Shown here one piece after another: positions 2,504 through 5,194 of a DNA stretch of 32,593 bases. Origin of the DNA: an uncultured Verrucomicrobiota bacterium (GTDB lineage Bacteria; Verrucomicrobiota; Kiritimatiellia; RFP12; UBA1067); assembly GCA_945834475.1 (NCBI GenBank), contig CAMAHK010000018.1:1-32593 (forward strand), given 5' to 3'. A program made the translations under genes and the position numbers. The notes beneath the pieces are model-generated. The model saw nothing but the letters and a program-made list of their open reading frames with translations. It made no database searches and was not told the origin of the DNA. Within the stretch, counting starts at the first letter, position 1, and the number at the start of each line of letters is the position of its first letter.

Positions 2504-3142
2504 CTATGCCGCCTGTCTGCGCGGCAGCTCCCAGATGAACGCGCGGCAGCGCTTCACCGACCGCCTGCCGGCCTTCGGGAAGTGCCTCGGCAGGAAATCC
2601 CTCACCTTCTTCAGGAAACCGAAGTCAGCCGAAATGTAGGCCCCCGTCTTGAAGACCTTCATCGACACGCGGATTGCCTGCGACGCCCGGTAAGTCGGCG
2701 GCACACGGGCGGGGCGGCCCTCTTTGTCCGCCGTCTCCTCGTCGTAGTCGTCAAACCACCTCTTGAGCTCCTCCGGCGTGACGCCTGGCGGCAGCTCGTC
2801 CGCATAGATCGACTCGAGCATCGCCCGGACCTCCTCCCAGGGCTGGCCGAACATGGCTTCGTACATTCTGCGGCATCGCTCGCCGTCCTCTCCCGCGTCG
2901 TTCGCCGCCAGCGAATAGCTGCTCCACTTCCAGGCGTCGGGCGAGGGCGCGATCCCCGCCTTCACCGGATTGTACGCGACATATGCGGCCACGACGGCCA
3001 GCACCTCGCGCTTGCGCTCGACGACGCCGCTGTAGAACCGGCCCTGCCAGAGGCACCCCTCGTGGCCGTACGTGTCGTTGTACCACATGCTGACCTTCTC
3101 CTTCAGTGTCTTGAGGTTATGCTGGGCCCAACATAACCTCAA
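2504..3142 (-). mobile_element. REP-associated tyrosine transposase (RAYT, Y1_Tnp/IS200-like), N-terminally truncated
   Basis: MWYNDTYGHEGCLWQGRFYSGVVERKREVLAVVAAYVAYNPVKAGI is the C-terminal half signature of RAYT proteins. The HUH-containing N-terminal half is absent. Confidence 0.75.
3111..3142. repeat. 32-bp near-perfect palindrome at the truncated 5' end of the RAYT
   Basis: TTGAGGTTATG-c-TGGGCCCA-a-CATAACCTCAA, with one mismatched pair. Confidence 0.85.
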
Positions 3143-3256: not shown

Positions 3257-3658
3257 ATGTCGCACATGATTCCAGAGACGACGCTTGAATTCGATCCGCA
3301 GGGGCGGGAGGATCTTGTGTTCAATGCGCTGAAGGTTGGACTTGGGGATGGGTATTGGGTGTTTCATTCTTGCTCGGTGAATCAGACAGGACGGGACGGA
3401 TCGTTCTACGAGAAGGAGATCGACTTCGTCATCTATCACCGGGAGAAGGGCATCCTTTGCCTTGAGGTTAAGAACGGAAGCGGGATTTCGTACTATGGTG
3501 GAATCTGGCGGTATTCGAGCGGACAGCCGATGCCGCATCATGGGCCGTTCAAGCAGGCGCAGTTTTCGGTCTGGCGTGGGAGTTCCTTTGCCGCGTTGTG
3601 CCGATTGTGTTGTTTTGCGCGGTGGTGCTGGCGGCCGTCGTGGGCGGATTGTGGCTGA
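3257..3658 (+). pseudogene. NERD-domain (nuclease-related) N-terminal fragment
   Basis: EKEIDFVIYHREKGILCLEVKNGSGISYYGGIWRYSSG...GPFKQAQ is NERD-like. After about 3561 the homology ends. A different frame then encodes a hydrophobic tail (FGLAWEFLCRVVPIVLFCAVVLAAVVGGLWLIGRVARALGGK*). Confidence 0.6.
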
Positions 3659-3765: not shown

Positions 3766-3868
3766 TTCATGCAGATTCTGTGAATTTTCAATGTAGCTTT
3801 CATGCGTAAAATGTGAATATATGGCATTGTATTCATGCGGAAAGTGTGATACACTATGCCGCATGAAT
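3766..3868 (+). promoter_or_regulatory. Three direct repeats at 33-bp spacing plus a dyad overlapping the start codon
   Basis: TTCATGC-repeats start at 3766, 3799 and 3832. ATTCATGCGG (3831-3840) and CCGCATGAAT (3859-3868) form a perfect 10-bp inverted repeat around AGTGTgatACACT. Confidence 0.75.
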
Positions 3869-5194
3869 CGGGATTTACTGGCAAAACTTCAGGATTGGAA
3901 CAGAAGCGAGAAACGTAAGCCACTTGTTCTCATGGGCGCACGGCAGGTTGGCAAGACCTGGCTGATGGAAGAGTTCTCTCGTGTTTGCTATCCAGAAGAC
4001 ACGGTTAAGGTCAATTTCATGACGGATGATGTTCTTCGGGATGCGATGGGACATGTCAATCTTGATGCGCAATCCGTCGTCGAGGTGATAGAAACGGTGA
4101 CGTCCAGAAAAATTGTTGCCGGACGTACATTGCTCATGATGGATGAGATTCAGGAAGCGCCGCGTGCCCTGACGGCACTGAAGTTCTTTCAGGAGCAGAT
4201 GCCGCAGCTTGCCATTATCGTGGCTGGATCGCTCTTGGGTGTCGCCGTGAACAGGAATCGGAAGAAGGGAATGCGCGAAAAACCGGCACGTGTATCGTTT
4301 CCCGTTGGCAAGGTTAACTTCCTAGATGTTCGTCCGATGACGTTTGTGGAGTTTTTGGATGCGATTGGCGAAACGGGGAAAAGCGCGGCAATTCGGGGAG
4401 AGAAGTGGTCTGTGATGGAGTCCATGTCCCCCTCGTTCGAAGATCTCGTTCGCAAGTATGCGCTTGTTGGCGGCATGCCGGAAGCGGTATTGACATACAG
4501 CCTTACGCATAATCTGGCGGACGTTCGAAAGGTGCAGCAGGAGATTCTGTTGGCCTATGACGAGGATTTCGCCAAGCACATTGAAGGGGCGATGCTCCAG
4601 AAGGTACGATTGCTGTGGCGGTCGGTTCCCGCTCAACTGGCAAAGGAGAACAAGAAGTTCATTTATACGGCATTGAGGGAAGGTGCACGGGCACGGGAAT
4701 ACGAGGTGGCGTTGGAGTGGCTTGAAGACGCGGGGATGGTTTGTCGGGTCAATCGCGTCACGCGGCCTGACCTGCCGCTCAAGGCATATGAGGAATTCGG
4801 CGCTTTCAAGTTGTATGCCCATGATGTCGGATTGGTGTCGGCCATGAGCGAGTTGCCGCCTTCGGTGGTGTTGGATGGGAATAAGGCCTTTACGCATGCC
4901 AAAGGCATGTTGGCCGAACAGCTTGTCCTGGAAGAACTGGTGGCTCGGGATGTTCATCCGTATTACTGGTCACCGGATGATACGCGGGCGGAAGTTGAGT
5001 TTGTTGTGCAGGGTGAACGTGCCGTATTTCCGATAGAGGTGAAGGCGGAAAAGAACCTTAAGGCAAAGAGCCTGAAGATTTATCGTGAACGCTTTTCCCC
5101 GGAGAGATGTCTGCTTTTTTCAATGGATAAGCGCAGTCCTGGAACGCAAGTAGACGGTTATCCGCTGTATGCGATTGCGGCGGTGCGCCTTTGA
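3863..5194 (+). CDS. AAA ATPase with DUF4143 C-terminal domain
   Basis: Walker A-like GARQVGKT, Walker B-like LLMMDEIQ, and a C-terminal PIEVKAEKNLKAKSLKIYRERFSPERCLLFSM nuclease-like segment typical of the AAA_14/DUF4143 family. The internal ATG at 3863 is the likely start. Confidence 0.85.
   Translation: MNRDLLAKLQDWNRSEKRKPLVLMGARQVGKTWLMEEFSRVCYPEDTVKVNFMTDDVLRDAMGHVNLDAQSVVEVIETVTSRKIVAGRTLLMMDEIQEAPRALTALKFFQEQMPQLAIIVAGSLLGVAVNRNRKKGMREKPARVSFPVGKVNFLDVRPMTFVEFLDAIGETGKSAAIRGEKWSVMESMSPSFEDLVRKYALVGGMPEAVLTYSLTHNLADVRKVQQEILLAYDEDFAKHIEGAMLQKVRLLWRSVPAQLAKENKKFIYTALREGARAREYEVALEWLEDAGMVCRVNRVTRPDLPLKAYEEFGAFKLYAHDVGLVSAMSELPPSVVLDGNKAFTHAKGMLAEQLVLEELVARDVHPYYWSPDDTRAEVEFVVQGERAVFPIEVKAEKNLKAKSLKIYRERFSPERCLLFSMDKRSPGTQVDGYPLYAIAAVRL

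What the first reader, a model, noticed from the sequence alone, without database searches (positions are those of the whole stretch)
3766..3868. Three repeats at exactly 33-bp spacing, ending in a dyad that encloses the promoter and start codon of a DUF4143 ATPase
Seen directly: TTCATGCAGATTCTGTGAAT (3766), TTCATGCGTAAAATGTGAAT (3799) and TTCATGCGGAAAGTGTGATA (3832) are spaced exactly 33 bp apart, about three helical turns. The third unit also forms ATTCATGCGGaaAGTGTgatACACTatgCCGCATGAAT (3831-3868), which contains ATG 3863. A plausible promoter sits inside: TTGTAT (3827-3832), 17-bp spacer, TGATACACT extended -10, and then only 7 nt to the ATG. Inference: a phased operator for cooperative binding, possibly autoregulation by the ATPase itself, controlling a near-leaderless transcript. 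DUF4143 ATPases are abundant and their function is largely unknown.
Basis: partly seen in the sequence, partly recalled or inferred. Interest (0 to 1): 0.66.

Follow-up and report, generated by a model that had tools for sequence, protein, structure and literature searches.

The report
Self-read operator arrays of DUF4143 ATPases
The three phased repeats in front of this gene are one case of a promoter array found in front of the same kind of ATPase-nuclease gene (a very common, untested phage-defence candidate) in at least seven bacterial phyla, and the repeat letters change in step with amino acids of the protein, so each protein most likely reads, and controls, its own promoter.

Summary
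Of 254 non-redundant homologous AAA_14/DUF4143 genes, 168 carry a strong direct repeat in the 220 bp upstream, 161 of them spaced exactly 32 or 33 bp (controls 12/191). The arrays occur in at least seven phyla, on chromosomes and plasmids. Units share a core (AAAA[A/G]TGT); their 5' half differs between genes but is near-identical within an array. The -10 (or Bacteroidota -7) box sits at a fixed helical phase to the units. No neighbour gene is conserved. Residue 400 (PD-(D/E)XK domain) predicts the 5' half of the unit: Q gives AA[G/C][T/A][C/G], K gives TT-rich; this held in unseen loci (12/15 vs 0/23, p=2e-7), and 20 co-changes on the tree all go the right way. R278 in the winged-helix recognition helix goes with G after ATGT. 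Best reading: cooperative autoregulation, probably repression, by the protein itself, with paralogue-private specificity. Binding and repression are inferred, not shown. The family is PADLOC's PDC-S01.

The parts
3766..3785 (+). repeat unit 1 (distal)
   Evidence: detected as array copy
3799..3818 (+). repeat unit 2
   Evidence: 33 bp from unit 1
3832..3851 (+). repeat unit 3, lying in the -35/-10 spacer and touching the -10
   Evidence: same geometry as the commonest class of homologues
3827..3832 (+). inferred weak -35 (TTGTAT)
   Evidence: sequence; 17-bp spacer also read in several homologues, e.g. TTGATT-17-TACACT in L070; not reported by the consensus scan
3850..3855 (+). inferred -10 (TACACT), preceded by TG
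   Evidence: sequence; phase -1/0 to unit end as in homologues
   Evidence: not seen in relatives read
3863..5194 (+). AAA_14 / DUF4143 ATPase gene, 443 aa (PADLOC PDC-S01); start set by homology (M-x-R at the N terminus)
3920..4357 (+). AAA_14 domain (residues 20-165), P-loop GARQVGKT
4583..4822 (+). winged-helix domain (residues ~241-320); recognition helix 277-289; R278 codon 4694-4696 associated with G after ATGT
4898..5191 (+). C-terminal PD-(D/E)XK-like part (E352, E377, E379, E392, K394); K400 codon 5060-5062 covaries with the 5' half of the unit

Best explanation
The three units are an operator array for the protein that the gene encodes. The AAA-winged-helix-PD-(D/E)XK protein binds each unit through its own DNA-reading surfaces: the winged-helix recognition helix (R278) at the conserved AAAA[A/G]TGT end, the C-terminal PD-(D/E)XK domain (K400) at the private end. 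Because units are 32-33 bp (three turns) apart, bound protomers stand on one face of the helix and can assemble cooperatively through the AAA modules. The promoter-proximal unit lies on the -35/-10 region, so occupancy most likely represses the gene (autorepression); a change of oligomeric or ATP state, or titration, would derepress it. Each paralogue has its own unit sequence, so the many paralogues in a genome do not cross-regulate. Shown: the arrays, spacing, promoter phasing, private sequence, absence of a conserved neighbour, and residue-base covariation. Inferred: physical binding, its sign (repression), cooperativity, and the inducing signal.
For: 161 of 168 strong upstream repeats are at 32/33 bp among 254 genes, versus 5 at 32/33 bp in 191 control genes. 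172 arrays, 2-6 copies, spacings 33:217, 32:112, 31:5, 34:5; positions 9-14 carry 0.05-0.37 bit between genes but are 86-92% identical within arrays. Seven phyla, Fusobacteriota. No neighbour family shared by more than 4 of 80 loci. The -10 is phased to the units with a 10.7-bp period, p=8e-15 (sigma70 type) and p=5e-10 (TAnnTTTG type). Residue 400 vs unit 4-7, z=12.3 under within-clade permutation; disjoint pairs 33:0; prediction written and met in held-out loci, 12/15 vs 0/23, p=1.7e-7; on a tree built without that region, 20 of 33 residue changes fall on the same branch as the unit change, all in the right direction. R278 with G after ATGT, held-out 13/13 vs 5/41. AlphaFold model (pLDDT 86) resembles Pab2304 and DNA-bound Orc1/Cdc6.
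Against: No binding or expression data. The PD-(D/E)XK active-site residues are conserved, so the domain could cut the units rather than only bind them. About a third of the homologues show no array by this pipeline. Several further residue-base links picked from the discovery set did not reach significance in held-out data, and R-with-AGTT failed too. The R278 link has only 4 same-branch co-changes. Phylogenetic non-independence weakens all simple p-values. Overlap of an upstream array with a promoter is partly forced by geometry; the helical phasing is the stronger point.
Confidence: 0.74

Rival explanations
1. The protein reads the arrays, but as loading or cleavage sites of its nuclease (for mobility, copy-number control or a self-marking step) rather than as a transcriptional operator.
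For: The reading residue 400 lies six residues after the E392-V-K394 motif of a PD-(D/E)XK domain whose catalytic residues are nearly invariant in 240 proteins. The genes also ride on plasmids.
Against: Units lie only upstream: 1 of 78 arrays has unit copies elsewhere in its locus, so there is no matching end element. The promoter is helically phased to the units in two promoter types.
Confidence: 0.14
2. An unlinked host regulator binds the units; the association with the gene is regulatory but not self-directed.
For: Arrays are operator-like and near promoters.
Against: Units differ between paralogues of one genome and the query unit is unique in its genome; the same architecture in at least seven phyla and on plasmids would need a universal co-travelling regulator, yet no neighbour is conserved; unit letters track residues of the encoded protein.
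Confidence: 0.05
3. The repeats are sequence-intrinsic elements: phased A-tracts that bend DNA or act as UP elements.
For: The core is an A-tract and the period is close to three helical turns.
Against: The TG(T) letters are among the most conserved, the 5' half is kept identical inside an array although it is free to vary between genes, and it covaries with protein residues.
Confidence: 0.04

Closest known systems
PADLOC PDC-S01 (phage-defence candidate), Pfam PF13173 AAA_14 + PF13635 DUF4143
   Same: The encoded protein scores E=8e-152 to PDC-S01 and has both Pfam domains. It is described as an ATPase fused to PD-(D/E)XK, the fourth most common defence across prokaryotes, experimental validation pending for most PDCs (PMC12988326).
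   Different: The passages read describe no promoter, repeat or self-regulation for PDC-S01, and the library holds one paper naming DUF4143.
RptR repressor of type I RM defence islands (PMC12255303)
Archaeal Orc1/Cdc6 initiators and their origin-recognition boxes
   Same: AAA + winged-helix architecture; DNA-bound Orc1/Cdc6 structures are among the best fold matches (2v1u, 2qby); repeated boxes near the own gene (box part from general knowledge).
   Different: TM-scores are low (0.29-0.33), there is an additional PD-(D/E)XK domain, private units instead of conserved boxes, and no evidence of replication function.
Pab2304, Walker-type ATPase of Pyrococcus abyssi (PDB 2qen)
   Same: Best fold match, E=4e-7.
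   Different: 14% identity; TM 0.42/0.52; no DNA site described in the tool result.

Membership tests
AAA_14/DUF4143 (PDC-S01) protein family | Curated HMM matches to AAA_14, DUF4143 and PADLOC PDC-S01 | tested here: met
   DUF4143 116.8 bits, AAA_14 64.5 bits, both above cut-off; PDC-S01 503.9 bits
AAA_14/DUF4143 (PDC-S01) protein family | P-loop, Walker B and PD-(D/E)XK residues | tested here: met
   K31, D94, E95 invariant; E352, E377, D/E379, E392, K394 nearly invariant in 240 proteins
Validated anti-phage defence system | Protects cells against phage | not testable with these tools
   Only location (HipBA and type I RM genes in the window) and the published candidate status
Autoregulatory direct-repeat operator | Repeated sites overlapping or phased to the promoter of the gene | tested here: met
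Autoregulatory direct-repeat operator | Encoded protein determines site specificity | tested here: met
   Residue 400 predicts unit class in held-out loci and co-changes on the tree; correlational, not biochemical
Autoregulatory direct-repeat operator | Binding of the protein and change of transcription | not testable with these tools
   needs EMSA and reporter assays
CRISPR-like array | Identical repeats with unrelated spacers of fixed length, leader and cas genes | tested here: not met
   2-6 diverging copies abutting the gene's promoter, and no gene family shared by more than 4 of the 80 loci within 3 kb
Transposon end repeats | Related repeats at both ends of the element | tested here: not met
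   1 of 78 loci has unit copies elsewhere
RNA element (riboswitch/leader) | Rfam match; element inside the transcript | tested here: not met
   No Rfam match at E<=1; the units lie upstream of the inferred -10

The most novel reading that the evidence does not exclude
One of the most abundant candidate defence families of prokaryotes is self-addressed: every copy carries a private, co-evolving DNA address in its own promoter, read jointly by the winged helix and the PD-(D/E)XK domain. The nuclease domain's DNA specificity would then be readable from the promoter alone, which gives a residue-to-base code and the first concrete DNA target for a DUF4143 protein. Bound protein held on the array would be the resting state of the defence, released or activated by a phage signal.
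Probability: 0.35. Interest if true: 0.9.

Novelty: new variant of a known kind. Interest (0 to 1): 0.8.

Why it matters
DUF4143/PDC-S01 proteins are counted in the tens of thousands and, in the literature that could be searched here, have no described biochemical target. The arrays give each protein a predicted binding site, a cheap assay (EMSA or reporter with its own promoter), and natural specificity-switch pairs for mutagenesis. They would explain how genomes keep up to ~39 such paralogues apart, and supply a sequence signature for annotating start codons and promoters of the family.

Tried and rejected
Conserved exact motif TTCATGCGnAAAnTGTGA as a regulon site: rejected, it is unique to this locus. 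Dyad 3831-3868 as an operator: not rare (23 comparable arm pairs in the window) and not seen in the relatives read. Repeats at both ends (mobile element): not found. Neighbour-encoded regulator: no conserved neighbour. RNA element: no Rfam match. PDB relatives by sequence: none useful (only Midasin P-loop matches). A first regional Mantel analysis on 87 arrays gave only weak signals. Residues 376, 402 and 280 covaried with unit letters in the discovery set but not significantly in held-out data, and R400 with AGTT failed; these are not claimed. An initial 278-unit10 link turned out to be a register effect of the G after ATGT. The first held-out batch had too few Q proteins to decide (2), so more loci were fetched before the final reading; the written prediction and the array PWM were left unchanged. 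The unit-class pattern in the test (AA[GC][TA][CG]) is the one written, slightly wider than the one used.

Full report
Observation. The three units and the 33-bp spacing are exactly as described. In the whole genome of the window (2.57 Mb, 134 contigs, 85.5% complete) the pattern TTCATGCNNNNNNTGTGA occurs three times, all here, and with up to three mismatches only two weak sites appear elsewhere. The units are therefore private to this gene.

The gene. ORF 3863-5194 encodes 443 aa with AAA_14 and DUF4143 and matches PADLOC PDC-S01 at E=8e-152. PDC-S01 is reported as the fourth most common defence across prokaryotes, ATPase fused to PD-(D/E)XK, with experimental validation pending for most PDCs (PMC12988326); it is also the most frequent individual locus in rumen genomes (PMC13356809). 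AlphaFold (24-sequence alignment, mean pLDDT 86) gives an AAA module, a winged helix (recognition helix 277-289, wing 293-319) and a C-terminal alpha/beta part with E352, E377, E392-V-K394. Best fold matches are Pab2304 (2qen) and AAA-winged-helix initiators of the Orc1/Cdc6 type, with modest TM-scores.

Recurrence. Homologues in the same genus almost all carry 2-4 direct repeats at 32-33 bp immediately upstream. Eighty further loci from named genomes show the same in Kiritimatiellae and Victivallales (Verrucomicrobiota), Bacteroidota, Bacillota, Gastranaerophilales, Spirochaetota, Actinomycetota and Pseudomonadota; a Fusobacterium plasmid adds a 2-copy case. The enlarged set has 254 non-redundant genes chosen by protein similarity alone. 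In it, 168 have a best repeat of at least 16/20 identical bases in the 220 bp upstream, and 161 of the 168 are spaced 32 or 33 bp, although 20-60 bp was searched; 191 other genes of the same loci give 12, of which 5 at 32/33. With an iterated weight matrix, 172 arrays have 2-6 copies and spacings 33 (217), 32 (112), 31 (5), 34 (5).

Anatomy of a unit. The 3' part, AAAA[A/G]TGT, is the shared core. The 5' part (positions 9-14) is close to random between genes (0.05-0.37 bit) but 86-92% identical among copies of one array. So copies in an array are kept alike while the sequence is free to differ between genes, as expected if each gene's units have a dedicated reader. 29 of 172 arrays are inverted relative to the gene.

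Promoter. In 92 of 115 arrays with a clear -10, a unit overlaps the -35/-10 region; proximity alone favours that. More telling, the distance from the unit to the -10 follows a 10.7-bp period (R=0.64, n=78, p=8e-15), and the same holds for the Bacteroidota -7 element TAnnTTTG (R=0.79, n=34, p=5e-10). Two promoter types with different consensus are thus placed on the same helical face relative to the array. Here unit 3 touches the inferred -10 (TACACT 3850-3855), one of the commonest classes. The p-values treat sequences as independent, which they are not fully.

Who reads the array? No neighbour gene family is shared by more than 4 of 80 loci within 3 kb, so the gene travels alone and the parsimonious reader is its own product. 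Covariation supports this. Mutual information between protein columns and unit positions, compared with permutations of units within protein clades, has its strongest pairs at residue 400 with unit positions 6 and 7 (z=12.3 and 11.1; also 5 and 4). The table is simple: glutamine goes with AAAAGTC/AAAACTC-type, lysine with TTTTC/ATATTC-type. In 52 disjoint protein pairs (identity at least 45%) that differ at this residue, the G/C type is with Q in 33 and never the other way. I wrote the prediction down and then fetched new loci. In 68 held-out arrays, Q has the predicted type in 12 of 15 and K in 0 of 23 (p=1.7e-7). On a maximum-likelihood tree of 240 proteins built without residues 388-412, 33 residue changes and 36 unit changes occur; 20 coincide on the same branch, all in the right direction. 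A second link, R278 at the start of the winged-helix recognition helix with G after ATGT, holds in discovery (34/37 vs 7/65) and held-out data (13/13 vs 5/41) but has few independent co-changes (4), so it is weaker. The query obeys both: K400 with TTTTCATG, R278 with TGTGA. Other residue-base links from the discovery set (376, 402, 280) did not hold.

Mechanism. Shown: array, spacing, promoter phase, private sequence, solitary gene, residue-base covariation. Inferred: the protein binds its array with winged helix and PD-(D/E)XK domain, stacks cooperatively on one face of the DNA, and represses its own promoter by occupying the -35/-10 region. Private sequences would insulate paralogues; up to 39 DUF4143 genes occur in one genome of this genus, and the window's genome has 14, several with visibly different arrays. 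The main rival is that the domain with intact catalytic residues cuts or loads at the array.

Variation in the family. Other DUF4143 subfamilies carry, at the same place, repeats at 22-23 bp (L021, L037, L038, L050) or long near-perfect palindromes (13-17 paired bases against a shuffled maximum of 8-9: L001, L012, L018, L022, L026). This suggests that promoter-proximal self-operators are general to DUF4143, with changing geometry; that extension was not tested by covariation.

Novelty. Autoregulation through direct repeats is a known kind; RptR represses a defence island through three direct repeats (PMC12255303). New here are the cross-phylum array of a solitary ATPase-nuclease family, its paralogue-private units, and a residue-to-base rule placed in a PD-(D/E)XK domain. 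The open-access library holds a single paper that names DUF4143 and no paper combining at least four of the five terms autoregulation, direct repeats, 33 bp, AAA+ ATPase and nuclease; subscription journals and preprints are not covered.

Noticed in passing
L001, L012, L018, L022, L026 upstream regions: DUF4143 genes of other subfamilies have 13-17-bp-arm palindromes just upstream of the -10 instead of 32/33-bp arrays.
   Followed up: partly
L021, L037, L038, L050 upstream regions: Some DUF4143 subfamilies have repeats at about 22-23 bp (one helical turn less) in the same position.
   Followed up: partly
L124:5880-5960: A second array with the same unit and the same preceding terminator-like stretch lies about 2.9 kb downstream of the gene with no DUF4143 gene behind it; perhaps a relic of a lost copy or a second target.
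   Followed up: partly
L387:3870-3990 (B. thetaiotaomicron plasmid NZ_CP143942.1): Two units 66 bp (2 x 33) apart with the middle position degenerate, next to two HipBA pairs; a convenient system for experiments.
   Followed up: partly
[quoted passage not shown]
   Followed up: partly
3257-3658: ORF with a NERD domain (PF08378) covering only the N-terminal part; looks like a truncated gene just upstream of the array.
   Followed up: no
2504-3142 (- strand): ORF without Pfam match that by eye resembles the C-terminal part of a REP-associated transposase; next to it the inverted repeat GAGGTTATG...CATAACCTC (about 3114-3141).
   Followed up: no
L111, L130, L148 versus L127: The same unit (GTGCGACTAAAAA) occurs in Bacteroidota in inverted orientation and in a Clostridiales genome in forward orientation, so specificity is shared while array orientation differs.
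   Followed up: partly
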